From IMG/VR virus record IMGVR_UViG_3300040808_000116, positions 1 through 45,371 of that record: a DNA stretch of 45,371 nt. One strand, written 5' to 3'. The notes beneath the pieces were generated by a model, which ran no database searches, was not told the origin of the DNA, and saw only the letters and a list, made by a program, of their open reading frames with translations. Below, piece by piece: positions 17,455-28,740 of the stretch (the first letter of the stretch is position 1; each line of letters begins with the position of its first letter). Both the position numbers and the translations under genes were made by a program. This stretch comes from a virus.

Positions 17455-18231
17455 TTACTCTCCTTTCATAGTAATGTTGGCAAGGTTGGTTAGGTCTTCC
17501 TCATTACGATATTTCAAATCATCTTTCAAACGCAGCACTTGCACATTGTCTACATAGCCTCTCAATTCCTTTGCCATTGCCAGTGTCTTTGGTAATGCAT
17601 CAGGGTCTAGTGCAATCACTGCCGTTGAGAACTGTGAGAGATACCTTTTGTGTGTTTCGGCGAGAGACGTTCCTAACACAGCAACCCCGACAAGGAAACC
17701 GCAACCAACAACGGCGGCACTCACACAGTCCTCAACAACAACTGCGACATTACCATAACCATGTGTGTATGGCAAGCCACTATTTCCATATCTTTTCCAT
17801 TTAGGTAATCTTTTTCCTAATGCACGACCTGTAGCATCTACAATAACTCCATCGTGAATCACAGGAAATACAACACGAGATTCCTTTACATCGTAATGCA
17901 AACCCAGGTCCTGGGAATCTAATCCCCACGTAGCACACCACCTATCCATGTATGTGCCACCAGAACGAGGCACGATGTAACTTGGCAGTTCAAACGTATC
18001 TGCTGCATATTCTGCTGCACCAGTAAAGCCAGCACGAATATCATCAACAGACAATCTAACACGCTCACCACCTTTAACTGCACAAGAAGCCTTGTAGCAA
18101 TTCCACACAAGACTGCCCATGTTATTGGTCACAGTAAATGTTTTGTAACCACCACAGTTAGGACAGTCCATTCTCTTTGTATGTCCATTAGGTATGTCTA
18201 ATTCACTTATAGTGTTATATATATTATACAT
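17455..18231 (-). CDS. T7 gp4-like DNA primase (zinc finger plus TOPRIM), 258 aa
   Basis: The N-terminal zinc-binding domain is CPNCGGYKTFTV...WNCYKASC (four Cys). The RNA polymerase/TOPRIM part has AVVVEDCVSAAVVG (catalytic Glu) and AVIALDPDA (DxD). It makes RNA primers for the adjacent helicase and polymerase. ATG 18229-18231, ten bases after AAAGGAG and overlapping the integrase stop region (GTATAACATG), is the likely start. Positions 17903-17915 inside the gene hold one perfect copy of the CCCAGGTCCTGGG palindrome, encoding Gln-Asp-Leu-Gly. Confidence 0.93.
   Translation of the reverse strand: MYNIYNTISELDIPNGHTKRMDCPNCGGYKTFTVTNNMGSLVWNCYKASCAVKGGERVRLSVDDIRAGFTGAAEYAADTFELPSYIVPRSGGTYMDRWCATWGLDSQDLGLHYDVKESRVVFPVIHDGVIVDATGRALGKRLPKWKRYGNSGLPYTHGYGNVAVVVEDCVSAAVVGCGFLVGVAVLGTSLAETHKRYLSQFSTAVIALDPDALPKTLAMAKELRGYVDNVQVLRLKDDLKYRNEEDLTNLANITMKGE
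17903..17915. repeat. CCCAGGTCCTGGG palindrome, copy in primase gene
   Basis: Perfect 13-bp copy inside the primase coding region, specifying Gln-Asp-Leu-Gly. A degenerate copy (TCAGGTCCTGGG) lies at 19895-19906 in the DUF932 gene, also coding Gln-Asp-Leu. Confidence 0.85.
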
Positions 18232-18232
18232 G

Positions 18233-19150
18233 TTATACACTCTCCTTTGCGGCATTTGTAATGCTTTTAACATGATTATTTCGCTCCGTCAATGCATAAT
18301 TTGCACTTGTAAGAGTATTTTTCATGTAAGGTTTCACCGAAGATGGATTAGCATGTCCTGTGACCGACATAATTTGTCCAATACCGACACCAGCCTCGAC
18401 CATTTCAGTTGTTCCAGTTCTTCGTAGGTCAGATAGTCGCAGTTCATCTGACAAACCAGCCTGCTGCATTAACTTGCGAGCATGTAGAGGCAACTTCTGC
18501 AGTGAATAGGGCTTGTATTCACCGCGAATCGGATTAGGACGAGGGGCTACATAAGGTTGAAAGCCAAAGTCCTGCTCCTGTTGCTGTAACATACCAAACA
18601 AATCATCTTCAATGGGCAGATGCACCTCTGCTTTACGCTTGGATTGTTTTATATGAACAGTCTTCGTGTCAAAGTTGATGGCATCCCAAGTGAGCATACG
18701 CATGTCACCTAAACGCTGACACCACTCGTATGCCATGTGTGCAATAAGACCTATGTTACGAGTGCTAAAATCGCCGTAGGCGGCGTTAAGAAACTTGGCT
18801 ACATCATCCCTACTCCAGACCGTCTTACGCCTCTCTGTGGAGCGTTTACGGACGTTTGCGAATGGGTTTAATGTGCATAGTTCCATACGAACACCGTGAT
18901 TGAGTGCAATGCGGGTAGCAGAGATGACATGATTAGCCATAGAGACACCTTTCTCACACCATTCGTTGTATGCAACCTTTGCAACACGAGTAGTGAGTTT
19001 ATCGCAGTCATACTGGCAAAGAAGTTTATCTTCTACCTTTGTATTTAGCATGACATTAAGAAAGTATTCATACTGCTTCTTCGTTTCATCACGCAAATTG
19101 CGATAGTCATACGAAGAATAGTAATCGCTGATTACTTTTTCTAGTTTCAT
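18233..19150 (-). CDS. int: tyrosine recombinase (phage integrase family), 305 aa
   Basis: The N-terminal SAM-like core-binding domain spans residues 1-100. Catalytic residues seen: Arg in EWCQRLGD, Lys in KQSKRKAEVHLP, Arg in LRLSDLRRTGTTEM, His in SVTGHANPSSVKPYM, and the Tyr of that last segment. The usual HxxR histidine is Ser here (SDLR). It could integrate phage DNA or resolve genome multimers; no attachment site is evident. It lies between the primase and a PD-(D/E)XK gene. The start codon overlaps the upstream stop (TAATG). Codons 5-9 contain a copy of the GTAATC/GATTAC dyad found at 23-28 kb. Confidence 0.92.
   Translation of the reverse strand: MKLEKVISDYYSSYDYRNLRDETKKQYEYFLNVMLNTKVEDKLLCQYDCDKLTTRVAKVAYNEWCEKGVSMANHVISATRIALNHGVRMELCTLNPFANVRKRSTERRKTVWSRDDVAKFLNAAYGDFSTRNIGLIAHMAYEWCQRLGDMRMLTWDAINFDTKTVHIKQSKRKAEVHLPIEDDLFGMLQQQEQDFGFQPYVAPRPNPIRGEYKPYSLQKLPLHARKLMQQAGLSDELRLSDLRRTGTTEMVEAGVGIGQIMSVTGHANPSSVKPYMKNTLTSANYALTERNNHVKSITNAAKESV
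19121..19135. repeat. GTAATC/GATTAC dyad inside the integrase start
   Basis: GTAATCGCTGATTAC plus a T-run on the + strand, within codons 5-9 of the integrase gene (Lys-Val-Ile-Ser-Asp-Tyr). It is the same dyad, polarity and A-run as the array at 23.3-28.5 kb, but here in coding sequence. Confidence 0.85.
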
Positions 19151-19467
19151 TATATGTCAACTCCTATTCTGTCATTGGATGAGTAAAGTTTACCTTTGTA
19201 TTTTGTAATAATCTCTACTCCCAATTCTTTTTGCCTATCGCTTGTTGCACCTGTAGATAGTCTAACACTGCCATCTTTTTTAATAGACACATTAGCAGTC
19301 TTGCTGTCATAGTAATAAAACTTATTTGTTTCATTATCGAGAACAATAAAGTCGATAGCACCTGTGCATGATAAATTTTTGAAGACCTCAAAACCTTCAT
19401 TGAGAAAATGGTGACACAACTCAATCTCTGTTATGTCGCCTTTTCTTTTGTCGTGTAAGACCGTCAT
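19150..19467 (-). CDS. PD-(D/E)XK nuclease-like protein, 105 aa
   Basis: The pattern KGDITEIELCHHFLNEGFEVFKN...GAIDFIVLDNE...YYYDSKTAN gives the Glu, the GxxDF acidic strand and the (D/E)xK motif of small restriction-like nucleases or Holliday-junction-resolvase-like enzymes. The substrate is unknown. Beside the integrase it could act in recombination, or it could be a homing-type enzyme. AAAGGAGAAAGAA precedes the ATG, and its stop overlaps the integrase start. Confidence 0.82.
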   Translation of the reverse strand: MTVLHDKRKGDITEIELCHHFLNEGFEVFKNLSCTGAIDFIVLDNETNKFYYYDSKTANVSIKKDGSVRLSTGATSDRQKELGVEIITKYKGKLYSSNDRIGVDI

Positions 19468-19616
19468 TTCTTTCTCCTTTTTGGAACTGCGTTAATTTTT
19501 GTTTTCTTTTTGCTAGGCTTCCAATAACCTATACGCATATTGATAGGCGTTCTGGTATCGTCAGTGATGGGGCTAAATGAAGCCCCACCTGATTTAGTTA
19601 TGTTACGGACTTTCAT
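19464..19616 (-). CDS. small basic protein, 50 aa
   Basis: ATG 19614-19616 overlaps the stop of the DUF932 gene (ATGA), and its own TGA overlaps the next start (ATGA), so it is translationally coupled at both ends. The protein begins MKVRNITKSGGASFSPITDD and ends in a Lys/Arg-rich tail (KPSKKKTKINAVPKRRKK) likely to bind nucleic acid. A perfect GGGGCT-AAATGA-AGCCCC hairpin (19569-19586) lies inside the coding sequence. No family recognised. Confidence 0.78.
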   Translation of the reverse strand: MKVRNITKSGGASFSPITDDTRTPINMRIGYWKPSKKKTKINAVPKRRKK

Positions 19617-20467
19617 GCTGCCACCAAATCTTGGAATGGCTTTGATTCAATCCACTTGGACACTTCGTGTTCACGCTGGAACATTGATGTGGCCTGTGTA
19701 TCAAGACCAGTGTTACGAAGGTTGAAACCATTACGCTCATCAGCATAAGTGGCATAGTTTGTGAAGGCACTGTAGAGTGCAAACACATTCCTACCACGGA
19801 CGCTAACCTCTTGATTGTAAAGGGTAAACATCTTCTCTGACTTACGCTCTGACTTCAGTATCTTGTCCAGCAAGTCTTTAACATTTACGAATGTCAGGTC
19901 CTGGGTTGCCCATTGCTGAAGTCGTGCTGACTGCTGGTAGAAGTCTTGCTTGGAACTGTGTAGGTCTGTGATGAACCTACCCATGCTGAAGTTGGATGTG
20001 TTCTTACGCCGCACCTTGTCATGCTCACCACGGATCATTCCGTTTGTGCAGAAGAAGTCGATAGCACCGAAGAACACCATGTTAGAACATGAGCCATCAA
20101 TGCCGTGCAAAGCGATGATGCGTTGCGACACAGTAGTTTCATGTCTGTCGGTGGTGATTGTTTCGGTAACATTCGGAAGGGTCACATCCATCAATGCCCA
20201 AGCATTGCTTCGTGCATCTTTCCATTGAACTTTAGCACCTCTGGTTTCTTGTTCCGTCAGGTTTTCCAACATTGTCTGCTGCACACCTTGGAAGAACTCA
20301 TCGTGAGTTGCGCAGTTAAAGCCAGAGCCTACGACACCGATGTATTCACCAGTGTTGCCGTTGATGACATACTTCTTGTCACTAACTTTGGTTGGCTCAA
20401 ACTCCACATTGAATGTGAGGTGGTCAGGGGTTTGTGAGATAGTCTGGTTTGTAAAATCTAATGGCAT
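19613..20467 (-). CDS. DUF932-family phage/plasmid protein, 284 aa
   Basis: Family features are NGNTGEYIGVVGSGFNCATHDEFF near the N-terminus, a central beta-rich region, and TNGMIRGEHDKVRRKNTSNFSMGRF. DUF932 proteins occur on phages, plasmids and integrative elements; their biochemical role is unknown. The gene follows directly after the promoter at 20504-20532, so it heads the transcript that continues into integrase and the replication genes. AAGGAGGCTTATC precedes the ATG. An imperfect CCCAGGACCTG motif lies within it at 19894-19905. Confidence 0.85.
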   Translation of the reverse strand: MPLDFTNQTISQTPDHLTFNVEFEPTKVSDKKYVINGNTGEYIGVVGSGFNCATHDEFFQGVQQTMLENLTEQETRGAKVQWKDARSNAWALMDVTLPNVTETITTDRHETTVSQRIIALHGIDGSCSNMVFFGAIDFFCTNGMIRGEHDKVRRKNTSNFSMGRFITDLHSSKQDFYQQSARLQQWATQDLTFVNVKDLLDKILKSERKSEKMFTLYNQEVSVRGRNVFALYSAFTNYATYADERNGFNLRNTGLDTQATSMFQREHEVSKWIESKPFQDLVAA

Positions 20468-20503
20468 GATAAGCCTCCTTTCGTTAGGGTTAACTGTTGT
20501 TCT

Positions 20504-20532
20504 CTTATATCAATAAAAATCGGCAAAGTCAA
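20504..20532 (-). promoter_or_regulatory. sigma70-type leftward promoter for the DUF932/integrase/replication operon
   Basis: On the minus strand TTGACT (20532-20527), a 17-base spacer and TATAAG (20509-20504) form a good promoter about 40 bases before the DUF932 start. It lies in the only gap in this part of the early block, just downstream of the SleB hydrolase stop. Confidence 0.8.
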
Positions 20533-20952
20533 CTACTCCCACCGATAAAAGATATGATCTCCAATGCGAACAACTTTTGTTTTGGTTTCTGCCCATTCTG
20601 GGTAGACATAGTGTGCATGGTAGTGTGTTGCACCTTCTACAAAGTCATCAAGATTGCCATAGTATACGCCATGCGCAATCATAACGGCTTTATCCCATGC
20701 TTCCTTGTCATGTGCTTTATCAGACTTGCCATCACAATACCAACTGAATTGGCAGCGGTAACGCACTGGAAAGTTTTCAGTCCAAGAGTAGGTAGGACCT
20801 TGCATAACAACATCACAAGGATTGTTGGGGTATCTTGTATCATAAACTCTGTTCATCACTACTTGTGCTACCGCAACCTGCCCAATAAAGGGCTGGTCAC
20901 GGGCTTCGTGATACACATTGAGTGCGATACAGACAAGTGCTTCAGTCAACAT
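20533..20952 (-). CDS. SleB-type cell wall hydrolase, 139 aa
   Basis: Peptidoglycan hydrolase (Hydrolase_2/SleB family). Motifs: CIALNVYHEARDQPFIGQVAVAQVVMNRV with the catalytic-type Glu, then YPNNPCDVV and QFSWYCDGKSD, and DDFVEGATHYHAHYVYPEWA. It has no signal peptide. It sits in the early leftward block rather than with the lysis genes, and a second wall enzyme (GH24 lysozyme) is encoded at 34784. ATG 20950-20952 is preferred; GTG 20962-20964 is possible. Confidence 0.9.
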   Translation of the reverse strand: MLTEALVCIALNVYHEARDQPFIGQVAVAQVVMNRVYDTRYPNNPCDVVMQGPTYSWTENFPVRYRCQFSWYCDGKSDKAHDKEAWDKAVMIAHGVYYGNLDDFVEGATHYHAHYVYPEWAETKTKVVRIGDHIFYRWE

Positions 20953-21199
20953 AAGGTTGTTCACCGTCTGGGTTCACAGTTACATCCGCAAGCACCCAAT
21001 CTGCATAGTGCTGAATGTGTCCTTCATCATCTCGTTGTGGCACAAAGTTAAGAACACTATGCATCAAATTTTGTAGCCGTTCTAACTTACCTATATCGGA
21101 CACCCAAATGTCATGGCACTCATTCAATGTCATAAGAATATCACGCAAGTCATTGTGCGCATTGAGAAACTTCAGTCGTTGTTCGTGTGATATGTTCAT
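20942..21199 (-). CDS. small hypothetical protein, 85 aa
   Basis: AAAGGAGAAGTAGC precedes the ATG; the start overlaps the previous gene by four bases. The protein is helical (NISHEQRLKFLNAHNDLRDILMTLNECHDIW...ERLQNLMHSVLNFV) with an acidic, beta-like C-terminal part. No family recognised. Its last bases overlap the SleB hydrolase gene. Confidence 0.72.
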   Translation of the reverse strand: MNISHEQRLKFLNAHNDLRDILMTLNECHDIWVSDIGKLERLQNLMHSVLNFVPQRDDEGHIQHYADWVLADVTVNPDGEQPYVD

Positions 21200-21702
21200 G
21201 CTACTTCTCCTTTCATCCAGTAGGGCATCTCTCGCCCTTTGTTGTATCGTGCAAACTTGATTTTGTCTACCTTGTAGAAAGCACGATAGGCCATAATAGG
21301 CCAGCGTTCATCTGTCTTTAGGTCATCGTGACCACTGAAGCATTGCGGGTGTGGTGTTACTCCTCTTGCTTGTGGAAGAAATTGTTTGCCGTTGCGCAGC
21401 ACATCCTGATGTCGTGAAGCACCATGTTTTTTGCCGTAGCGGTAAGTGTATTCCTCAAGCATTGCCTCATACAACATGAAAGCAAACGAGTAGTTTTCTT
21501 GGTTTTCCATAGCCCACAATGTGCAAGGATGCTTCTGATGCACAGGCTTGTATAGCCCATGCTTCTCTGCATACTCCGGCGCATGATGCCAGAGGGTAGT
21601 GCAAAGCATCTGTGCCTCTTCAAGTGGCATCTTTACTATGTGTTGATCGCAAAGTTGTTTAGAGATTGCAATCGGATGGTGGTCAATTAAGAAGCGGTTC
21701 AT
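21196..21702 (-). CDS. conserved phage protein of the DKHVVKM type, 168 aa
   Basis: The pattern MNRFLIDHHPIAISKQLCDQHIVKMPLEEAQML, HPCTLWAMENQENYSFAFMLYEAMLEEYTYRYGKKH and MAYRAFYKVDKIKFARYNKGREMPYWM matches a conserved protein I recall from T4-like and cyanophage genomes (N-terminal LDxDP..AA...CDKHVVKM). Members have no demonstrated function. AAGGAGATACAGAAC precedes the ATG. Many His and Cys residues may bind metal, which is speculation. Confidence 0.8.
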   Translation of the reverse strand: MNRFLIDHHPIAISKQLCDQHIVKMPLEEAQMLCTTLWHHAPEYAEKHGLYKPVHQKHPCTLWAMENQENYSFAFMLYEAMLEEYTYRYGKKHGASRHQDVLRNGKQFLPQARGVTPHPQCFSGHDDLKTDERWPIMAYRAFYKVDKIKFARYNKGREMPYWMKGEVA

Positions 21703-21925
21703 GTTCTGTATCTCCTTCCTCTTTTCCTAGCACCAGTTGCGCTATAGGTTCCGCTACATCTGGTAGTTGGTAAACGAAGATAGAAACCGTATCTTCCTCT
21801 TCCGTGATTAGGACAGTTAAACCCTTCTCACGCAAAGCAATGAACAGGCTACCATCGTCTACATGGTTTGCATCGACAAGGTAATTGTCGCCTATGATTA
21901 TGCCTTTTTCTTTAACTTCAATCAT
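21683..21925 (-). CDS. small hypothetical protein, 80 aa
   Basis: ATG 21923-21925 overlaps the stop of the upstream gene; an ATG 27 bases earlier would add nine residues. The protein has an alternating beta pattern (KGIIIGDNYLVDANHVDDGSLFIALREKGLTVLITEEEDTVSIFVYQL) and an acidic end, consistent with a small beta-barrel. No family recognised. Confidence 0.7.
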   Translation of the reverse strand: MIEVKEKGIIIGDNYLVDANHVDDGSLFIALREKGLTVLITEEEDTVSIFVYQLPDVAEPIAQLVLGKEEGDTEHEPLLN

Positions 21926-22151
21926 CTGCTCTGTCCACAGGCCAATCATCATCAGCCTTCTTGTCTATTACCTGACACTGGTATTTGTAGTCAAGCAAAC
22001 GCTGTATGAACACATAAATGTGACCATCATCTGGCTTGCCCATCTGTTCCCAATGCTTGCGTTCATCTGCTTCTACATATGCCAGCAGCATATCTAGTGC
22101 TTCGTATTGCCCCTTGGTCATGGGCTTTGGTTTGTATTTGTAAATGCTCAT
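21918..22151 (-). CDS. small hypothetical protein, 77 aa
   Basis: The ATG overlaps the methyltransferase stop (ACATGA) and follows AAAGGAGTAACGAC. It begins with a Lys/Tyr/Pro-rich segment (SIYKYKPKPMTKGQYEALDMLLAY), then a helix, then an acidic end (KKADDDWPVDRADD). Coupling to the methyltransferase suggests a shared transcript; function unknown. Confidence 0.72.
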   Translation of the reverse strand: MSIYKYKPKPMTKGQYEALDMLLAYVEADERKHWEQMGKPDDGHIYVFIQRLLDYKYQCQVIDKKADDDWPVDRADD

Positions 22152-23272
22152 GTCGTTACTCCTTTCAGTATATGTGCGATAACATCAACTGTCCAACCAT
22201 TGCCAAGCATCTTGTAACGCTGACTGTTTGACACATGGTTTGTGTAATTATCTGGCACAGTCTGTAATCGCTCACATTCTAGTGGTGTTAGTTTGCGCCA
22301 CAAAGGACGCATCTCTTTTGTGTAGGCATCCTCATATCTACCCTGTGACAAGATAGAAATCAAGGTGTCTTTGCTTATAGTGGACAAACAACGAGACTTG
22401 TCATGCTCATGCACCTCAAGGCATTGGGTGATAGGCACAGACTTGTCATTGTCTTTACGCACACCATCCTGCAACCTACGCCCCACGATAGAGGCAGGGT
22501 TGACCATTACCTTTGGCTCAAGGTTGCCACCACTTGCAGCACACAGGCTAGGTGATTTACCTTCAGGATGGTACACACGCTTGTTATATCCATGACCCTT
22601 GATGTCTGCATCACCGACATGGCACAAGCCATCCTTGCTGAAGACAATCTGTCTACGGCTCTTGTCAAAGTAGACACGAAGGTTAGACATGCCACCACCT
22701 TTGAAGTAGTTGGCATCAATGCAGTGAGACTTCTCTCTGTCGGTAATGAAGTTATCCTCAAGAATGTCCTGCAACTTGATACCCAGGTCCTGGGGTGTAT
22801 CAAACGGAATATTTGTCCAGTATAACCTGTAACGATTCTGTGCAGACAAGAGACTGCTGTTGATAGCCACAGGTTGCACACCAAGATATTCACTGATGAT
22901 GTCTTGGCTCTCCTGTTTCATACGCACATTCTCAAGCAGGAAATACTTGGGCTTGCACTCTTTGAGGATACGCACATATTCAAAGAACAACTTGCTGCGT
23001 GGGTCATCAAAGTTCAATCGCTTGCCAGCCATACTGAAACCCTGACAAGGTGAACCACCCAACAACAGGTCAATCTTCATGCCTTCAAATGTTTCAGGCC
23101 ACATAACTTGCTGAACATCACCAATGTGAATTGTATCAGGGTAGTTAGCCTTGGCAACTTGGATGGCATACTTGTCAATCTCACTAGCGAAGTAGTTTGT
23201 GACAGGGATACCTGCTTTGTCCAAGGCAATGCGTCCACAGGACATGCCGTCAAATAAAGATAGAACATTCAT
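22148..23272 (-). CDS. DNA (cytosine-5) methyltransferase, 374 aa
   Basis: Transfers methyl from S-adenosylmethionine to cytosine C5. Motif I FDGMSCGRIAL, motif IV GGSPCQGFSMAG with the catalytic Cys, motif VI LLENVR, motif VIII QNRYRLYW, and motifs IX-X (RKLTPLECERLQTVPDNYT, MLGNGWTVDVIAHI) are all present and in order, so it should be active. The variable region between VIII and IX sets target specificity and cannot be read by eye. No restriction enzyme partner is adjacent, so it is probably a solitary protective or regulatory enzyme. It follows a GTAATC/GATTAC repeat, and contains a CCCAGGTCCTGGG palindrome at 22782-22794. Confidence 0.95.
   Translation of the reverse strand: MNVLSLFDGMSCGRIALDKAGIPVTNYFASEIDKYAIQVAKANYPDTIHIGDVQQVMWPETFEGMKIDLLLGGSPCQGFSMAGKRLNFDDPRSKLFFEYVRILKECKPKYFLLENVRMKQESQDIISEYLGVQPVAINSSLLSAQNRYRLYWTNIPFDTPQDLGIKLQDILEDNFITDREKSHCIDANYFKGGGMSNLRVYFDKSRRQIVFSKDGLCHVGDADIKGHGYNKRVYHPEGKSPSLCAASGGNLEPKVMVNPASIVGRRLQDGVRKDNDKSVPITQCLEVHEHDKSRCLSTISKDTLISILSQGRYEDAYTKEMRPLWRKLTPLECERLQTVPDNYTNHVSNSQRYKMLGNGWTVDVIAHILKGVTT
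22782..22794. repeat. CCCAGGTCCTGGG palindrome, copy in methyltransferase gene
   Basis: Perfect 13-bp palindrome around a central T, with one CCAGG and one CCTGG (CCWGG sites) back to back. On the coding strand it specifies Pro-Gln-Asp-Leu-Gly. Confidence 0.85.
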
Positions 23273-23286
23273 ACTGTCTCTCCTTT

Positions 23287-23303
23287 AGTAATCACTGATT
23301 ACT
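23287..23303 (-). repeat. GTAATC/GATTAC dyad repeat, copy 1 (before methyltransferase)
   Basis: AGTAATCACTGATTACT plus T-run on the + strand. It lies between the 66-aa gene and the methyltransferase; on the minus strand it ends just before AAAGGAGAGACAGTATG, so it is in the methyltransferase leader. Confidence 0.9.
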
Positions 23304-23307
23304 TTTT

Positions 23308-23508
23308 TTACTCTATGAACAAGAACCCTGCACCATTACCTTCAGGGTCACGAGATACAGACACCTTGAGTGTTTCCTTGGTGTCTGTATGTTGAAGTAG
23401 GAACACTGGAAATGGTTCATCATCATATTCATCTTGCTCGTATTCAAAGCGAATAATTTTGTAACCTACCAGTTGCTTGTAGTAGTCTGTGAAATCACCA
23501 TCTCTCAT
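23308..23508 (-). CDS. small hypothetical protein, 66 aa
   Basis: The ATG overlaps the stop of the DUF1281 gene (ATGA). The protein alternates strands (YKIIRFEYEQDEYDDEPFPVFLLQHTDTKETLKVSVSRD) and is acidic, suggesting a small beta domain. Its stop TAA directly abuts the A-run of repeat copy 1. No family recognised. Confidence 0.75.
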   Translation of the reverse strand: MRDGDFTDYYKQLVGYKIIRFEYEQDEYDDEPFPVFLLQHTDTKETLKVSVSRDPEGNGAGFLFIE

Positions 23509-24041
23509 GCTATTGCTCCTACATTTTGCTGTTGCTCTTCATACTCTGCTTCTTCAAGCCGCCACTCTTCAAGTGTGGCAGTGATGTCGAATGCTTCATC
23601 AAGGTCAGGTGTAACACCCTCGCTGATGTCGTTGATAAATTCATCACTGACTTCACCATCGGCATCACAGTGCCATTCACCTGCGAACATCATGCCATAC
23701 TCTACATAGTATGCCTCAACCTCAAAGCCCTGCTCTGCAAGTTCCTCATACACAGAGATAGGCGGCGACCATGCAGTGTCAAAGTCAAACGATACAGTGT
23801 GGTCATCATGCTGATGCCATGACATATGGCAAGCATCCCACTTTGTTCCCCAATTATTTACTGACCAATCATACCAGTTGGGCTGGTCACTTGGGCTGGT
23901 AGTGTCACGCAGTTCCTCTGGCATAGGCTTGATGAATTGAAACAAGTCACCATCACCAGCACGAACCTGTGCCATGAGGTTGTCCATGGTGTCTGCATCT
24001 TTGTGTGTGATTGTCAATGTGTTGTTGCACCAATTAGGCAT
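23505..24041 (-). CDS. DUF1281 / Api92-like ferredoxin-fold protein, 178 aa
   Basis: The N-terminus MPNWCNNTLTITHKD and the central FIKPMPEELRDTTSPSDQPNWYDWSVNNWGTKWDA, DFDTAWSPPISVYEELAEQGFEVEAYYVEYGMMFAGEW are diagnostic of this phage family, named after the APSE phage protein. The function is unknown. The C-terminal 45 residues are acidic. It overlaps the neighbouring gene by one base and is expressed in the early block. Confidence 0.9.
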   Translation of the reverse strand: MPNWCNNTLTITHKDADTMDNLMAQVRAGDGDLFQFIKPMPEELRDTTSPSDQPNWYDWSVNNWGTKWDACHMSWHQHDDHTVSFDFDTAWSPPISVYEELAEQGFEVEAYYVEYGMMFAGEWHCDADGEVSDEFINDISEGVTPDLDEAFDITATLEEWRLEEAEYEEQQQNVGAIA

Positions 24042-24280
24042 TAGTCAATCTCCTCTACTTCAATCCAGCCACCACCCTGTTCAATGGTCATGCCTGTCAT
24101 GCTTTCAAAGTCCTCTATATCCTTGCGGATATTGTTTTCCAATTCTTCTTCAGTGTCATAGTAACCCAACACCTCTACCACAATGTCTTCAGGCTCACCA
24201 TCTGGTGAATTGTAGTATGCGTGTGAAAGTCCTGCTGGTGACATATCACCCATTGCCATTACTCGTGCTTCAAATGCCAT
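24041..24280 (-). CDS. small hypothetical acidic protein, 79 aa
   Basis: The ATG overlaps the upstream stop (TAATG). The protein is acidic (EPEDIVVEVLGYYDTEEELENNIRKDIEDFES) and ends GGGWIEVEEID. Its layout suggests a beta strand, helix, strand fold. No family recognised. Confidence 0.72.
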   Translation of the reverse strand: MAFEARVMAMGDMSPAGLSHAYYNSPDGEPEDIVVEVLGYYDTEEELENNIRKDIEDFESMTGMTIEQGGGWIEVEEID

Positions 24281-24645
24281 TATGCAGCCTCCTTTCCGAA
24301 ATAGCGTTTAGCCATGTCTTCTGTAATTTTGTATGTGCCATCTGCACCTGCTTTCTTTACAAGGAATGGATACTTGCTTGAGCGTGGCAAGTAACCAACG
24401 AGAGTGTAGACAGGGTGTGTCTTCTCAAGGTCAATGTCATACATATCTGCATAACGCCGCAAGTCCTGCATCTCCTTGCTATCTGCACCCTCAATTTTCA
24501 CTTCAAGTTTGAAGGTGGCAATGTTGCCAGAGTAAGAGCAGTTACCTGCATGAAACTCCAAGCCCTCGATTGAGCCTGCAAGTGCTTGATTGATTTGCTC
24601 ACGAATAAACCGCAGCGTGGTCTTGTCAAGTTGTGTAATTGTCAT
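24280..24645 (-). CDS. hypothetical phage protein, 121 aa
   Basis: AAAGGAGATTGACAC precedes the ATG. A helix (TLRFIREQINQALAGSIEGLE) is followed by beta segments (GNIATFKLEVKIEGAD) and a basic C-terminal part (LVGYLPRSSKYPFLVKKAG). I recall similar small phage proteins without known function. Not a recognisable enzyme. Confidence 0.75.
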   Translation of the reverse strand: MTITQLDKTTLRFIREQINQALAGSIEGLEFHAGNCSYSGNIATFKLEVKIEGADSKEMQDLRRYADMYDIDLEKTHPVYTLVGYLPRSSKYPFLVKKAGADGTYKITEDMAKRYFGKEAA

Positions 24646-24677
24646 GTGTCAATCTCCTTTCATAATCTAGTTTTGGT

Positions 24678-25097
24678 TTACCAAGATGCTTGATACTCAA
24701 CGCTGTTCCACAGATTTTTGGGCGCATTCTCTACCCAATCTGCGGCTTGGTCAAATACTTTGGCATCTTCCTCATTATACTTGCGGTATTCCTCTCGCAA
24801 TTCATCACTGCCAAAGAAGAAGCCCTCTGTATGTGGCAAGTCACCATCTCGCAAGGCTTGTGCCACCTGTCGTAGCCTTTCCACAGACATATGAATTACC
24901 TGACATTCATCTACACCATTAGCGAATGTGTTGACAATATAGCCGTGCAGGTTTGCGTGCTTACGCCAGTAGCCAAGTTCAATGCGTTGCGATTTCAGTT
25001 TGAAACCATCCACATACTGGACATTGATTTCATTGTAATCGTCATCGTATTCATTACACTTGTAGCGATCACCTGTAAGATACATATCTAATCCCAT
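24678..25097 (-). CDS. MGLDMYL-family conserved protein, 139 aa
   Basis: Begins MGLDMYLTGDRY and has IELGYWRKHANLHGYIVN, the two signatures of a family of small proteins found in phages and bacteria. The C-terminal half (ERLRQVAQALRDGDLPHTEGFFFGSDELREEYRKYNEEDAKVF) is helical. The function is unknown. AAAGGAGTGTTATATC precedes the ATG; a CCCAGGTCCTGGG palindrome lies just upstream. Confidence 0.8.
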   Translation of the reverse strand: MGLDMYLTGDRYKCNEYDDDYNEINVQYVDGFKLKSQRIELGYWRKHANLHGYIVNTFANGVDECQVIHMSVERLRQVAQALRDGDLPHTEGFFFGSDELREEYRKYNEEDAKVFDQAADWVENAPKNLWNSVEYQASW

Positions 25098-25117
25098 GAT
25101 ATAACACTCCTTTCATA

Positions 25118-25130
25118 CCCAGGTCCTGGG
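25118..25130. repeat. CCCAGGTCCTGGG palindrome, intergenic copy
   Basis: Perfect 13-bp copy in the 77-base gap upstream of the MGLDMYL gene, next to a hairpin terminator. Confidence 0.9.
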
Positions 25131-25142
25131 CTTTGGAAAAGT

Positions 25143-25163
25143 GGGGGCATATTCGCAGCCCCC
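25143..25163 (-). terminator. hairpin terminator, leftward
   Basis: GGGGGC (25143-25148), nine-base loop, GCCCCC (25158-25163). Leftward it is followed by AC then TTTT, a short U-tract, so it is probably a partial terminator for the upstream cassette genes. Confidence 0.65.
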
Positions 25164-25174
25164 ATTGTTGGTGG

Positions 25175-25423
25175 TTACTTTGCTTGGTGAATTACAAAGT
25201 CATTGCCATTCTTGCTGACAACCCGATAGAGATTCCAGAATGGGTTGCCGTAGTAACGAATGTGCAGTCCGTCATTAACTTGCAGGAACTTGCCATTTGC
25301 AGATGGACCTACATAGTATTTGCCCATGCGGTTGTATGTTGCATAGTTCTGACGGTCAATGGTTGGCTTTGCACCAGAGATTGCATTGAGGATGTTAGTA
25401 ACTTTCACTTTGATGTATGACAT
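25175..25423 (-). CDS. small hypothetical basic protein, 82 aa
   Basis: AAAGGAGACATCATC precedes the ATG. The protein is basic and aromatic (NAISGAKPTIDRQNYATYNRMGKYYVGPSANGKFLQVNDGLHIRYYGN), probably beta-rich. It is one of the small genes in the repeat-bounded stretch: a repeat copy lies upstream and a terminator downstream. No family recognised. Confidence 0.75.
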   Translation of the reverse strand: MSYIKVKVTNILNAISGAKPTIDRQNYATYNRMGKYYVGPSANGKFLQVNDGLHIRYYGNPFWNLYRVVSKNGNDFVIHQAK

Positions 25424-25450
25424 GATGATGTCTCCTTTCTGTATTGGTTT

Positions 25451-25467
25451 AGTAATCAGTGATTACT
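25451..25467 (-). repeat. GTAATC/GATTAC dyad repeat, copy 2
   Basis: AGTAATCAGTGATTACT followed by seven T. It sits in the leader of the 82-aa gene, upstream of its separate Shine-Dalgarno (AAAGGAG). Confidence 0.9.
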
Positions 25468-25521
25468 TTTTTTGGTTGAGTGGTGAGGACAAACCACCAC
25501 GACCTGTCCTCACCGAAGTTG

Positions 25522-25686
25522 TCAGGCTTTACGCAGGTTTTCTTGAAGCCAGAAATTGTTCTGGTGTTGATTCTTTGCCCTACGCTGCGCCTTACGCTCA
25601 CGCATTCTGCGTTCACGCTCACCAAGTTCACGAGCCTTCTTTACTGGAAGTTTCTCGAAAATAGGTGTCTCGTTCTTGTCTCGCAT
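25522..25686 (-). CDS. small basic protein, 54 aa
   Basis: ATG 25684-25686 follows AGAAAGGAGAAAGACC. The protein is strongly charged (LPVKKARELGERERRMRERKAQRRAKNQ), a likely nucleic-acid-binding helix. Its start overlaps the end of the NPVAKA gene by 59 bases in a different frame. Function unknown. Confidence 0.7.
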   Translation of the reverse strand: MRDKNETPIFEKLPVKKARELGERERRMRERKAQRRAKNQHQNNFWLQENLRKA

Positions 25687-25798
25687 GGTCTTTCTCCTTT
25701 CTGCGATTGTGTTTTGTTTTGTCTGGCACAACCTGCGCCCTGCGGCGATTATGTGCCATAGCCTTCGCTACAGGATTTACTTTACGAAAGCCTGTCAT
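25628..25798 (-). CDS. small NPVAKA-type basic protein, 56 aa
   Basis: ATG 25796-25798 opens a 56-codon frame beginning MTGFRKVNPVAKAMAHNRRR, then QVVPDKTKHNRRKEK. The RKVNPVAKA...VVPDKT pattern resembles a small basic protein I recall from several podoviruses. Its 3' third overlaps the 54-aa gene. The Shine-Dalgarno is weak (GGGGTTGACAATT). It could end effectively sooner; moderate confidence. Confidence 0.6.
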   Translation of the reverse strand: MTGFRKVNPVAKAMAHNRRRAQVVPDKTKHNRRKEKDHARQERDTYFRETSSKEGS

Positions 25799-25803
25799 AA
25801 TTG

Positions 25804-25968
25804 TCAACCCCGAAGGATAGATACGATGCCCATAGCACTGATAGCCAAGCCACCTGTATAGACGATAACATCTATGGGTGCAGCATAAGCCATGAGTTCA
25901 GGCAAAGCAAGGGTTACGAGAACTGCACCACCTACAGTGCAAACGAGTTTTAGTGTGTTCTTAAACAT
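25804..25968 (-). CDS. small two-span membrane protein, 54 aa
   Basis: ATG 25966-25968 opens MFKNTLKLVCTVGGAVLVTLALPELMAYAAPIDVIVYTGGLAISAMGIVSILRG. A first hydrophobic span (residues 8-22) and a second (34-51) make a small inner-membrane hairpin. Its ribosome binding site GAGGTGACTAAA is formed by a variant repeat copy (25972-25988). Function unknown; a holin-like or superinfection role would be speculation. Confidence 0.72.
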   Translation of the reverse strand: MFKNTLKLVCTVGGAVLVTLALPELMAYAAPIDVIVYTGGLAISAMGIVSILRG

Positions 25969-25971
25969 TTT

Positions 25972-25988
25972 AGTCACCTCTGATTACT
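25972..25988 (-). repeat. GTAATC/GATTAC repeat, copy 3, Shine-Dalgarno variant
   Basis: AGTCACCTCTGATTACT plus T-run. On the minus strand it reads AGTAATCAGAGGTGACT: one arm is altered and the centre has become AGAGGT, eight bases before the ATG of the 54-aa membrane gene. Confidence 0.85.
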
Positions 25989-25991
25989 TTT

Positions 25992-26585
25992 TTATGCCAT
26001 GATTGCGGTGACATGAAGCGCACTTACAGCGTCACCAGTGGCAAGGTTTTTGTTGGCACGATTGCCAGCGACATACTCACACCAAGTATCCCACCAATAT
26101 TGCGACCCACCTGTGCGCTTGCACAAGGCAACATAGTCAGCAATCTTCTTGAGTTTTGTAGCAGGTTTCACAGACTTTGCAAGGCGCAATGCTGTCCTCG
26201 CAAGCCCAAGCCTGTCACAATTATGGCTGTCGATACACGCGACTTCCATACCACATAACTGCGCCACAAACGCCGCTTTGACGATGCCCAAGCATGGTAT
26301 ACTGGTGAGCATATCAAGTGCCGCAATGGTATCGCCTGTCTCGACAAACTCACACATTTTGCGGTGCAGCCACTCTTTGTTGTCTTGCACGAACATATAC
26401 CCATCTCGTTTAGACCCAAACAGATATTTGCTGTCAGCCCCATTGATGCGTATGTCCTGCATCTGATTCGGTGTCGATGCTAGGGGTTGCTGTATCGTGG
26501 TGAACACGAAGTTGACCCCATCTGCAAAGTTGTCAGGATGCGACAGCATATGCCGTGCGATAATTGGATTGTCTCTCATATACAT
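25992..26585 (-). CDS. helix-hairpin-helix DNA-glycosylase-like protein, 197 aa
   Basis: Residues 90-125 read LDMLTSIPCLGIVKAAFVAQLCGMEVACIDSHNCDRLGL: a helix-hairpin-helix (IPCLGIVKA) followed at the normal distance by an Asp in a vDxHn setting, as in the HhH-GPD superfamily of base-excision glycosylases. The rest is helical. A DNA base-processing role is possible, but phage members are uncharacterised. ATG 26583-26585 has GGAG from the variant repeat at the right distance; ATG 26592-26594 would be too close. Confidence 0.65.
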   Translation of the reverse strand: MYMRDNPIIARHMLSHPDNFADGVNFVFTTIQQPLASTPNQMQDIRINGADSKYLFGSKRDGYMFVQDNKEWLHRKMCEFVETGDTIAALDMLTSIPCLGIVKAAFVAQLCGMEVACIDSHNCDRLGLARTALRLAKSVKPATKLKKIADYVALCKRTGGSQYWWDTWCEYVAGNRANKNLATGDAVSALHVTAIMA

Positions 26586-26588
26586 TTT

Positions 26589-26605
26589 AGTCATCTCCGA
26601 TTACT
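26589..26605 (-). repeat. GTAATC/GATTAC repeat, copy 4, Shine-Dalgarno variant
   Basis: AGTCATCTCCGATTACT plus T-run. Read leftward it is AGTAATCGGAGATGACT; the central GGAG serves as the ribosome binding site of the HhH gene. Confidence 0.85.
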
Positions 26606-26608
26606 TTT

Positions 26609-26782
26609 TTAGGACAAGTCCACACTTACACCAAACTCGATACGAACATCATGCAGATAAGTGAATGACCACTCATCGGGATAGGCAACGCCTCTGTCTT
26701 CACAATACTTGCGAACAATGTTCATAATCGCCTGCTGTTCCGCTGGGTCAAGTTTGCCCAATTCAATTCTTTCAATGTGCAT
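26609..26782 (-). CDS. small hypothetical acidic protein, 57 aa
   Basis: ATG 26780-26782 after CGGAGACAGAAA opens MHIERIELGKLDPAEQQAIMNIVRKYCEDRG...FTYLHDVRIEFGVSVDLS. The stop TAA abuts the A-run of repeat copy 4, and repeat copy 5 lies just upstream, so this is a one-gene cassette. Globular helix plus beta composition; no family recognised. Confidence 0.75.
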   Translation of the reverse strand: MHIERIELGKLDPAEQQAIMNIVRKYCEDRGVAYPDEWSFTYLHDVRIEFGVSVDLS

Positions 26783-26798
26783 TTTCTGTCTCCGTTTT

Positions 26799-26815
26799 AG
26801 TAATCACCGATTACT
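26799..26815 (-). repeat. GTAATC/GATTAC dyad repeat, copy 5
   Basis: AGTAATCACCGATTACT followed by seven T; in the leader of the 57-aa gene, upstream of a separate GGAG. Confidence 0.9.
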
Positions 26816-26859
26816 TTTTTTGGGTTAGTGTTCAAAGGGTTATCCCTCATTCTTTATAT

Positions 26860-26888
26860 ACATTATCACAAGAAAAAAGGAATGTCAA
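26860..26888 (-). promoter_or_regulatory. sigma70-type leftward promoter in the cassette array
   Basis: Minus strand TTGACA (26888-26883), 17-base spacer, TAATGT (26865-26860). It should drive the 57-aa gene and those downstream. A CCAGGTCCTGG palindrome (26891-26901) abuts the -35 box on its upstream side. Confidence 0.7.
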
Positions 26889-26890
26889 GC

Positions 26891-26901
26891 CCAGGTCCTG
26901 G
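26891..26901. repeat. CCAGGTCCTGG palindrome, copy at the 26.9-kb promoter
   Basis: Eleven-base perfect core of the 13-bp palindrome, two bases upstream of the -35 box and two bases downstream of a gene stop. Confidence 0.85.
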
Positions 26902-26903
26902 AC

Positions 26904-27131
26904 TCACAAATTGTTTAACCAGTCCAAGACCTCACTATATTTGCGTTGCTTGTGTTGCTCAAGAGCCACCTGCGCTTGCCGTTGCATTTCTAATGCACCC
27001 ATACGCAGCACAGGATATAGTCGCTCCATGTGCTTGCGTTGCGTATCAGGTGCGACACTCTCAAGTGTGCCACGCGACTTCAGACCATTTGCGGTCACTG
27101 TCGGCCTGTCATTATCCCATACCATTTTCAT
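26904..27131 (-). CDS. small hypothetical protein, 75 aa
   Basis: AGAAAGGCGGTGTGAT precedes the ATG. Basic first half (NDRPTVTANGLKSRGTLESVAPDTQRKHMERLYPVLRM) followed by a Gln-rich helix (LEMQRQAQVALEQHKQRKYSEVLDWLNNL). It is a single gene between repeat copies 5 and 6. No family recognised. Confidence 0.75.
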   Translation of the reverse strand: MKMVWDNDRPTVTANGLKSRGTLESVAPDTQRKHMERLYPVLRMGALEMQRQAQVALEQHKQRKYSEVLDWLNNL

Positions 27132-27152
27132 ATCACACCGCCTTTCTGTTTT

Positions 27153-27169
27153 GGTAATCAGTGATTACT
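27153..27169 (-). repeat. GTAATC/GATTAC dyad repeat, copy 6
   Basis: GGTAATCAGTGATTACT followed by T-run; it supplies the TAA stop of the 73-aa gene (AAA AAG TAA) and the leader of the 75-aa gene. Confidence 0.9.
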
Positions 27170-27386
27170 TTTTTTGATAAATACGAATATAGCCACGATG
27201 CAAGGCAAATAGTTTTGCTTCATCCTGCGACTTGAAAGGGCGCGACAGTATATGCGTGGTTTGACCACTGGCATTGCCATGCGAAACTTCAAGTATGCAG
27301 CCGCCAACAAAATGCTGGTCTGCATCCCAACCTGTGTGGTATGATACCCAATAATTGGGTGATGTGACTGTTACTACTGATTCCAT
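27165..27386 (-). CDS. small hypothetical protein, 73 aa
   Basis: The protein is beta-rich with many aromatic residues (TSPNYWVSYHTGWDADQHFVGGCILEVSHGNASGQTTHILSRPFKSQDEAKLFALHRGY). Its stop codon is part of repeat copy 6, and its Shine-Dalgarno (GGAG) is the centre of repeat copy 7, so both ends are defined by repeats. No family recognised. Confidence 0.75.
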   Translation of the reverse strand: MESVVTVTSPNYWVSYHTGWDADQHFVGGCILEVSHGNASGQTTHILSRPFKSQDEAKLFALHRGYIRIYQKK

Positions 27387-27389
27387 TTT

Positions 27390-27406
27390 GGTAATCTCCG
27401 ATTACT
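27390..27406 (-). repeat. GTAATC/GATTAC repeat, copy 7, Shine-Dalgarno variant
   Basis: GGTAATCTCCGATTACT plus T-run; leftward AGTAATCGGAGATTACC. Both six-base arms are intact and the central GGAG lies nine bases before the ATG of the 73-aa gene. Confidence 0.88.
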
Positions 27407-27449
27407 TTTTTGATGCTGTAGTGAAACCCCATGCCTCACTATCCCTTTC

Positions 27450-27478
27450 ATATTACTACACAAATTTGTGTATGTCAA
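27450..27478 (-). promoter_or_regulatory. leftward promoter with a 16-bp palindrome filling its spacer
   Basis: Minus strand TTGACA (27478-27473), 17-base spacer, TAATAT (27455-27450). The spacer contains the perfect palindrome TACACAAATTTGTGTA (27457-27472), an ideal operator for a dimeric regulator. It should drive the 73-aa cassette gene and those beyond. Confidence 0.75.
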
Positions 27479-27501
27479 GGAAGGTAGGCGAACTGGAAAA
27501 A

Positions 27502-27518
27502 GGTAATCAGTGATTACT
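27502..27518 (-). repeat. GTAATC/GATTAC dyad repeat, copy 8
   Basis: GGTAATCAGTGATTACT, followed by ATTTG rather than a T-run. It stands upstream of the 27.45-kb promoter and not next to any gene. Confidence 0.88.
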
Positions 27519-27551
27519 ATTTGTGACCCCCATGCTGCGTTGCGAGCGAAC

Positions 27552-27654
27552 TGACCCCCATGCGTGATAGTAAGTGATAGTAAGGTAGGGCAGCATTTGA
27601 ATGCCAGGACCTGGGTCTGATCTCCATGCCCAGTGATAGTAGATGATAGTAAGG
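27552..27654. repeat. two copies of a TGACCCCCATGC-GTGATAGTA module
   Basis: Copy A (27552-27585) is TGACCCCCATGC followed by two GTGATAGTA units and AGG. Copy B (27618-27654) is TGATCTCCATGC followed by GTGATAGTA, ATGATAGTA and AGG. The first half alone also occurs at 27524-27535 and, degenerate, near 27423-27434. Iteron-like; origin or regulator sites are possible. Confidence 0.75.
27604..27615. repeat. CCAGGACCTGGG palindrome, intergenic copy
   Basis: Same palindrome in the other orientation. With flanks it shares AATGCCAGGACCTGGG with the copy at 28729-28740. Confidence 0.88.
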
Positions 27655-27657
27655 CAC

Positions 27658-27688
27658 AAAAAAATGCCCCACACCTTTCGGTGTGAGG
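27658..27688 (-). terminator. strong intrinsic terminator after the first early gene
   Basis: Leftward: CCTCACACC-GAAA-GGTGTGGGG, a nine-pair stem with a GNRA tetraloop, then CA and seven T. It ends the transcript of the 199-aa gene. Confidence 0.92.
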
Positions 27689-27700
27689 CTTGGTGTTTTT

Positions 27701-27717
27701 AGTAATCAGTGATTACT
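27701..27717 (-). repeat. GTAATC/GATTAC dyad repeat, copy 9
   Basis: AGTAATCAGTGATTACT plus T-run, between the stop of the 199-aa gene and its terminator. Confidence 0.9.
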
Positions 27718-27719
27718 TT

Positions 27720-28319
27720 TTATGCGCTGGCGGCTTGCTTATCGTCTGCAATCTCGCCGTCTGCCATATCCCATAACATGGTAGACAATTCCATTGCGGC
27801 ATCTTTGCCTAATTCAGCAATCAGTTTTTGGGCGATTTGTTCAAGACTTGGCTTGGCGATTGTCTCACTTTCGCCTGTTTCACTTTCGCCTGTTTCATCA
27901 CTTGCGTCTGATTGCTTTTCTTGTTTTGGCTCAAGTGATTTTTGAAAAGCGGTAATTGCTGGCTTAACCTTGGCAAGTGATGAAGTGCCTTGGCCATGGT
28001 CACTTTCGCACCATGCACGAAAACCTGTTTCATTAATGGCAATCTCTTTTATGCCATTGTTGAAAATGTTTTTCTTGTGTTGGCTCATAATTGGCTTGCG
28101 CTCGCCTGTTTTCTTGTTTGGCTCGCCTAATTCATCATAGAGATAATCAGCCATTTTTGGATGACTAGAAAAAATCCACTCGCGATATTCATCAGTTTTC
28201 ATGCCGTCAATTTTTGGCTGATATAATTCTTTGCATTCAGCAATCAGCATATCGGCATTGTTCTTGATAAGCGCATTGTTCTTGTCGTTGGCTTTTTCGA
28301 TTTTCAAAATCATAGTCAT
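27720..28319 (-). CDS. first early gene, acidic hypothetical protein, 199 aa
   Basis: It is the first leftward gene after the divergent control region, transcribed alone: promoter 28376-28403 before it, terminator 27658-27688 after it. The N-terminal half is Lys/Asn-rich and helical (IEKANDKNNALIKNNADMLIAECKEL); the middle has FRAWCESDHGQGTSSLAKVKPAITAFQKS; then a GESETGESET repeat and an acidic, alanine-rich end. No domain is recognised. Position suggests an early takeover or regulatory protein, an inference only. ATG 28317-28319 is chosen; a TTG at 28370 would add 17 residues. Confidence 0.75.
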   Translation of the reverse strand: MTMILKIEKANDKNNALIKNNADMLIAECKELYQPKIDGMKTDEYREWIFSSHPKMADYLYDELGEPNKKTGERKPIMSQHKKNIFNNGIKEIAINETGFRAWCESDHGQGTSSLAKVKPAITAFQKSLEPKQEKQSDASDETGESETGESETIAKPSLEQIAQKLIAELGKDAAMELSTMLWDMADGEIADDKQAASA

Positions 28320-28375
28320 TGTTTCAGTCTTTCTGCCCAATGGGCGTTGGTTGTTTTGTCGTTGTGACAATTCCC

Positions 28376-28403
28376 ATTATTAGCATTTTTCAAACATTGT
28401 CAA
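28376..28403 (-). promoter_or_regulatory. leftward early promoter
   Basis: Minus strand TTGACA (28403-28398), 16-base spacer, AATAAT (28381-28376), about 55 bases before the ATG of the 199-aa gene. Confidence 0.75.
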
Positions 28404-28471
28404 ATAAAAAATGCAATGGGCTTGTGATTGGCTGAATTGCTGGCATTTTTAACAGACTGGTGATTTGTTTT

Positions 28472-28488
28472 AGTAATCGGTGATTACT
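28472..28488 (-). repeat. GTAATC/GATTAC dyad repeat, copy 10
   Basis: AGTAATCGGTGATTACT plus seven T, about 70 bases upstream of the early leftward promoter; the outermost copy of the array. Confidence 0.9.
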
Positions 28489-28540
28489 TTTTTTAATGGG
28501 CATTTTGATTGATTGATTATGGTGCTGCGCTTGCCATAAT

Positions 28541-28651
28541 GTTAGGCGTGGCTAACTTTTGTAGCATGACCATAGTTTATTAGGGGTGGCATATAATATG
28601 CACCAAGGCGATACATCTTTGCCCACTCTTAAAATGTTAGCCTTGCCTAAC
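28541..28651. repeat. inverted pair of 16-bp GTTAG...CTAAC dyads
   Basis: GTTAGGCGTGGCTAAC (28541-28556) and GTTAGCCTTGCCTAAC (28636-28651). The reverse complement of the first matches the second at 14 of 16 positions, 95 bp apart. Likely paired operator sites. Confidence 0.75.
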
Positions 28652-28728
28652 TTTACACTATCGTTAACTGATAGCATAACAGTTATCTATTTAATGCTAT
28701 CGCATTGATATTGTTGCATTTTTAATGC

Positions 28729-28740
28729 CAGGACCTGGGG
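28729..28740. repeat. CCAGGACCTGGG palindrome, control-region copy
   Basis: Same palindrome as at 27604, with the same AATG flank, in the divergent control region. Confidence 0.88.

What the first reader, a model, noticed from the sequence alone, without database searches (positions are those of the whole stretch)
17903..28740. Dispersed 13-bp palindrome made of two CCWGG sites in a phage with its own C5-methyltransferase
CCCAGGTCCTGGG is perfect at 17903, 22782 and 25118. It is near perfect at 26890, 27603 and 28728, and degenerate at 19894. Each copy holds CCAGG and CCTGG back to back, the Dcm-type target. Coding copies (primase, methyltransferase, DUF932) all encode Gln-Asp-Leu with the same codons, while other Gln-Asp-Leu segments in the window do not. 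One copy abuts a -35 box (26891) and one lies within the methyltransferase gene. A methylation-sensitive regulatory site or a specific protein-binding site is plausible.
Basis: partly seen in the sequence, partly recalled or inferred. Interest (0 to 1): 0.62.

Follow-up and report, generated by a model that had tools for sequence, protein, structure and literature searches.

The report
Dispersed palindrome in restriction-site-purged marine phage
A marine phage related to HMO-2011 carries seven scattered copies of a 13-base palindrome that are clearly kept by selection at the DNA level, most likely as binding sites for an unidentified phage protein, and these sites hold nearly all of the CCWGG sequences in a genome that otherwise avoids CCWGG completely.

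Summary
CCCAGGTCCTGGG occurs three times perfectly, three times with one mismatch and once with two, all within 17.9-28.7 kb. CCAGGWCCTGG occurs 6 times against 0.01 expected. The window is an HMO-2011-type phage. Its relatives purge CCWGG almost totally (1 site against about 929 expected in 628 kb; HMO-2011 0 against 82). In the window all 15 CCWGG overlap a GGWCC, 13 of them inside the palindromes, and no free CCWGG exists. The palindrome is lineage-specific: window, L007 and L090 only. Compared with relatives, coding copies arose by substitution, and in the methyltransferase the change falls at family-conserved residues (K/R to L in 78 of 83 homologues). One 5'-leader copy flipped its central base in L007 while keeping the palindrome. 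So selection acts on the DNA. Best reading: a dispersed dyad operator-like site for an unidentified phage DNA-binding protein (one copy abuts a -35 box). How double CCWGG sites are tolerated is unexplained; shielding by overlapping methylation is possible but untested.

The parts
17903..17915 (.). palindrome copy 1, perfect, inside the DNA primase gene (codons CAG GAC CTG)
   Evidence: L007-L010 have AACCCAAGGACATTGGCAT here (DANVLGLH instead of DSQDLGLH)
19893..19905 (.). palindrome copy 2, two mismatches (GTCAGGTCCTGGG), inside the DUF932 gene
   Evidence: conserved in L007-L010; L090 and L011 have GTCAGGTCAATG
22782..22794 (.). palindrome copy 3, perfect, inside the C5-methyltransferase gene (P-Q-D-L-G; family P-E-D-K-G)
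   Evidence: conserved in L007 and L090
25118..25130 (.). palindrome copy 4, perfect, in the 5' leader of the 24678-25097 gene, just upstream of its ribosome-binding site
   Evidence: L007 has CCCAGGACCTGGG (centre flipped, dyad kept)
26890..26902 (.). palindrome copy 5, one mismatch, abutting a leftward TTGACA (26888-26883) with GATAAT at 26867-26862 (15-nt spacer); dyad centre about -41 from the inferred start
   Evidence: sequence; conserved in L007
27603..27615 (.). palindrome copy 6, one mismatch, intergenic
   Evidence: L007 has GCCAGGACCCGGG
28727..28739 (.). palindrome copy 7, one mismatch, between the divergent leftward and rightward transcription units
   Evidence: partly kept in L090 (GCTGGACCTGGCG)
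12356..12363 (+). isolated CCAGGTCC: CCWGG overlapping GGWCC, present in the window and not in L007
14922..14929 (+). isolated CCAGGACC, present in the window and not in L007 or L008
22148..23272 (-). C5-cytosine DNA methyltransferase, 374 aa, specificity unknown
   Evidence: Pfam PF00145 E=1.9e-48; NCBIfam dcm superfamily

Best explanation
The 13-mer is a dispersed, two-fold symmetric DNA-binding site (half-site CCCAGG, single W centre), recently established and still spreading in one lineage of HMO-2011-type phages. A dimeric phage protein, not identified, most likely binds it to regulate transcription of the leftward early region. SHOWN: over-representation, lineage restriction, clustering in the early and replication arm, DNA-level selection overriding protein sequence, maintenance of dyad symmetry through a centre flip, and abutment of one copy on a -35 hexamer. 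INFERRED: protein binding, dimer, a regulatory role (activator-like geometry at 26890; leader or roadblock position at 25118 and inside genes). Separately, CCWGG is counter-selected in this phage group, probably by host restriction, and the palindromes (with a few CCAGGWCC singles) are the only CCWGG the lineage tolerates.
For: 6 CCAGGWCCTGG against 0.01 expected; none in nine long relatives or reference phages and none in the 74 primase-relative loci; two 14-mer scans of 2.9 million viral contigs found other CCWGG-depleted, homologous carriers only in the window/L007/L090 lineage. Copies arose by substitution, not insertion: the primase site differs from L007 at about half of the motif positions although the surrounding alignment is 88% identical. 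In the methyltransferase, residue 163 is K or R in 78 of 83 homologues and L only in the 5 rows of this lineage; Q at 161 replaces E. L007 flips the centre of copy 4. Over 19.8 kb aligned with L007, private free CCWGG are 0 and private free GGWCC 1, whereas private CCAGGWCC places are 4, the opposite of a neutral ratio. Relatives carry other dispersed early-region palindromes (TGTAACGSCGTTACA; AGTCCAACATTGGACT), so clade-specific dyads are a habit of this group. HMO-2011-type phages can be temperate: CRP-3 integrates (PMC6918029).
Against: No candidate DNA-binding protein was identified: the clade-shared small proteins had no informative Pfam match and the one model made was poor (mean pLDDT 44.6). 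Only one of the four intergenic copies lies at promoter distance from a sigma-70-like site; three copies are inside genes. The lineage is known from few contigs (window with two near-identical records, L007, L090, short L008-L010), so independent conservation is thin.
Confidence: 0.5

Rival explanations
1. Methylation-sensitive regulatory site: the phage methyltransferase methylates CCWGG in the palindrome and methylation changes the binding of a regulator.
For: Each full palindrome holds two CCWGG; the methyltransferase is a C5 enzyme, lies in the same lineage and carries a copy in its own gene; a phage-type C5 methyltransferase can act on CCWGG among other sites (BCE_0393, PMC3459991).
Against: General CCWGG methylation would protect free CCWGG, yet these stay purged in carriers. 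Phages sharing 75-76% of the recognition domain also avoid CCWGG, and they lack the palindrome.
Confidence: 0.12
2. Overlap shielding: the phage methyltransferase acts on GGWCC (or a longer site containing it). The mark then falls inside every overlapping CCWGG and makes it resistant, so CCWGG is allowed only as CCAGGWCC. The palindrome is the doubly shielded form.
For: All 15 window CCWGG and all 10 in L007 overlap GGWCC, against 0-15% in related phages that have CCWGG. The singles obey the rule too.
Against: It explains tolerance but not the excess: free GGWCC should then be common, but only 1 of 5 GGWCC differences between window and L007 is free, and free GGWCC density resembles relatives without the enzyme. 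L090 carries the enzyme yet has 2 GGWCC against 13 expected. All overlapping octamers are CCAGGWCC, none CCTGGWCC.
Confidence: 0.18
3. RNA element: transcripts form a CCCAG-GWC-CUGGG hairpin acting on stability or translation.
For: All coding and leader copies would be transcribed leftward; copy 4 sits next to a ribosome-binding site.
Against: Bases flanking the centre (GG and CC), which would be loop, are invariant in all seven window copies; mismatches in the outer pair are not compensated.
Confidence: 0.07
4. Mutational or mobile origin: copies spread by gene conversion or template switching, without function.
For: Copies 6 and 7 share extra flank (TTTKAATGCCAGGACCTGGG); the primase copy replaced a cluster of bases at once.
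Against: Flanks of most copies differ; the shared unit stops at about 13 bp; no insertion relative to relatives; the sites pay a restriction-type cost and change conserved residues.
Confidence: 0.13

Closest known systems
Mycobacteriophage L5 operators and stoperators (cluster A repressor sites)
   Same: More than twenty 13-mers dispersed over the phage genome, in promoters and short intergenic spaces (PMC9283540).
   Different: L5 sites are asymmetric, bound by a monomer, and oriented with transcription; here the site is a palindrome, orientation is not conserved, three of seven copies are inside genes, and no repressor is identified.
Restriction-site avoidance in phages (CCWGG, EcoRII/PspGI type)
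   Same: Near-complete absence of CCWGG in HMO-2011-type phages; EcoRII-C family genes occur in 11 of 385 genomes of the class and 18 of 296 genomes of the family of an uncultured Rhodobacteraceae genome.
   Different: The window lineage keeps and gains 13 CCWGG inside one palindrome while purging all others.
Phage-borne C5 methyltransferases (PHROG 116; multispecific prophage enzymes such as BCE_0393)
   Same: The 22148-23272 protein matches this family; BCE_0393 acts on GGWCC and partly CCWGG (PMC3459991).
   Different: Specificity of the window enzyme is unknown; its carriers show no general relief of CCWGG avoidance.

Membership tests
L5-type dispersed repressor sites | Many near-identical 13-bp sites dispersed in the phage genome | tested here: met
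   7 copies
L5-type dispersed repressor sites | Asymmetric site, orientation correlated with transcription | tested here: not met
   Palindrome; centre T on + strand in five copies and A in two, flipped in L007 copy 4
L5-type dispersed repressor sites | Cognate repressor encoded by the phage | tested here: inconclusive
   No repressor or HTH family match among the early proteins scanned; one poor model
Dcm-type methylation site of the phage methyltransferase | Enzyme is a C5-cytosine methyltransferase | tested here: met
   PF00145 E=1.9e-48
Dcm-type methylation site of the phage methyltransferase | CCWGG relieved from avoidance in phages carrying the enzyme | tested here: not met
   Free CCWGG 0 in window and L007; L092 2/19, L109 1/25
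Dcm-type methylation site of the phage methyltransferase | 5mC present at CCWGG in phage DNA | not testable with these tools
   Needs nanopore or bisulfite data
CCWGG restriction-site avoidance | CCWGG far below Markov expectation across the group | tested here: met
   1 against about 929 in 74 relatives; HMO-2011 0 against 82
CCWGG restriction-site avoidance | A CCWGG-cutting enzyme in the host | tested here: inconclusive
   Host unknown; EcoRII-C present in a minority of the genomes searched

The most novel reading that the evidence does not exclude
The phage uses an otherwise forbidden restriction sequence as its regulatory site: two CCWGG fused over one GGWCC, so that its own methyltransferase (or a bound protein) both shields the site from the host nuclease and switches its regulatory state, and the site spreads by selection through genes and promoters.
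Probability: 0.12. Interest if true: 0.8.

Novelty: new variant of a known kind. Interest (0 to 1): 0.5.

Why it matters
HMO-2011-type phages are among the most abundant known marine phages (PMC6918029), and the few papers found here do not describe dispersed regulatory sites in them. A restriction sequence absolutely purged from the group reappears in one lineage only inside a selected palindrome; that gives a concrete handle on an unknown phage regulator and on how a phage can afford restricted sites.

Tried and rejected
Dcm-type specificity of the methyltransferase: rejected as a general CCWGG protector. GGWCC specificity inferred from relief of avoidance: inconclusive once palindromes are set aside and regions are matched. 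Specificity from bacterial homologues with a neighbouring restriction gene: the eight homologues with the closest recognition domain, inspected only by eye through their flanking ORFs, showed no evident restriction partner. Protein-level explanation of QDL (a short linear motif): rejected because codons, flanking bases and intergenic copies are identical at the DNA level. Wider occurrence of the 13-mer: 187 further loci fetched from 214 contig stretches; those with two or more copies are high-GC and not CCWGG-depleted, so chance. Finding the binding protein by structure prediction of the 27720-28319 protein: model too poor for a fold search. Flank-anchored patterns found no further lineage members.

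Full report
What is there. The window is a whole 45,371-base IMG/VR virus record. Its primase, integrase and helicase region matches Puniceispirillum phage HMO-2011 (73% DNA identity over 1.75 kb), and its helicase matches Roseobacter phage CRP-1 at 84% amino acid identity: it is an HMO-2011-type phage. CCAGGWCCTGG occurs 6 times against 0.01 expected and CAGGWCCTG 8 times against 0.28.

CCWGG avoidance. In 74 related loci (628 kb) there is 1 CCWGG against about 929 expected; HMO-2011 has 0 against 82 and CRP-3 1 against 113. The window has 15, and every one overlaps a GGWCC: 13 in the palindromes and two isolated CCAGGWCC at 12356 and 14922. L007, the best-covered close relative, has 10, again all overlapping GGWCC, some at different places. 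In related phages that have many CCWGG, 0-15% of them overlap GGWCC.

Continued purge. In 19.8 kb aligned between the window and L007 (14% mismatches), the other W-centred palindromic pentamers show about 20-85 private occurrences, apart from CGWCG and CTWAG, which do not occur. CCWGG shows 6, all overlapping GGWCC; GGWCC shows 5, four of them overlapping CCWGG. Each site alone stays counter-selected while the combined CCAGGWCC is gained or kept. This is not a neutral by-product of relaxed selection.

Selection on the DNA. In the methyltransferase the palindrome spells P-Q-D-L-G where homologues have P-E-D-K-G; L at residue 163 is seen only in the 5 rows of this lineage while 78 of 83 have K or R. 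In the primase, L007-L010 have D-A-N-V-L-G-L-H and the window D-S-Q-D-L-G-L-H, by several substitutions and no insertion; in the DUF932 gene the lineage has A-T-Q-D-L-T where L090 and L011 have A-N-I-D-L-T. Copies at 22782 and 26890 are intact in L007. The copy at 25118 has its central base flipped in L007 with both half-sites kept. Copy 6 is partly decayed in L007, copy 7 partly kept in L090, and copy 1 is absent from L007. The site is therefore lineage-specific and turning over.

The methyltransferase. It is a C5 enzyme, found in the window lineage and not in five long relatives. Its homologues with a 75-76% similar recognition domain sit in phages that also avoid CCWGG; relative L024, with a fragment of a homologue, has 0 CCWGG. 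It does not act as a general CCWGG shield. GGWCC specificity would explain the overlap rule but not the scarcity of free GGWCC. A published multispecific prophage enzyme acts on GGWCC and partly on CCWGG (PMC3459991), so such a specificity is possible.

How it most likely works. The site is a strict dyad with a free W centre, typical of a dimeric DNA-binding protein (inference from general knowledge). The 26890 copy lies directly upstream of a leftward TTGACA-15-GATAAT; its centre is about 41 bases from the inferred start, an activator-like position (read; the 15-base spacer is outside the promoter scan). The 25118 copy is in a 5' leader next to the ribosome-binding site. The others lie in genes or farther upstream, which would suit roadblock or looping roles. 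HMO-2011-type phages can be temperate (CRP-3 integrates, PMC6918029), so a repressor with many sites is plausible. The protein was not found.

A habit of the group. The same lineage carries a second dispersed palindrome, GTAATCASTGATTAC, near the 5' ends of several small early genes; relative G005 carries TGTAACGSCGTTACA, and G006 and G007 AGTCCAACATTGGACT. Clade-specific dispersed dyads look like a general regulatory feature of these phages.

Not settled: the binding protein, the methyltransferase specificity, the nuclease behind CCWGG avoidance (EcoRII-C genes exist in a minority of the genomes searched, but the host is unknown), and why double CCWGG sites are affordable.

Noticed in passing
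window 19121, 23288, 25452, 26800, 27154, 27391, 27503, 27702, 28473: A second dispersed palindrome, GTAATCNNNGATTAC (mostly GTAATCASTGATTAC), with a T-run on the + strand side, near the 5' ends of several small leftward genes; also 4 copies in L007 and 8 in L090.
   Followed up: partly
G005 (L171), G006 (L183), G007 (L177): Relatives carry different dispersed palindromes: TGTAACGSCGTTACA x6 in G005, and AGTCCAACATTGGACT-type x7 and x5 in G006 and G007. Specificity seems to switch between clades.
   Followed up: partly
L190-L191 (HMO-2011), G006-G008: GATC is completely absent from HMO-2011 (0 against 170) and from relatives G006-G008, alongside CCWGG absence.
   Followed up: no
window 24280-24645 (-): A 121-aa protein of unknown function encoded close to the methyltransferase has homologues in about 15 other phage contigs fetched through the methyltransferase: a possible partner protein.
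   Followed up: no
window 25992-26594 (-): A 200-aa protein with no Pfam or PHROG match; by eye a stretch (LTSIPCLGIVKAAFVAQLCG) resembles a helix-hairpin-helix DNA glycosylase motif, untested.
   Followed up: no
L100-L102: A lone CCAGGTCCTGG about 3.5 kb from a related methyltransferase in other phages; free CCWGG are common there, so probably chance.
   Followed up: partly
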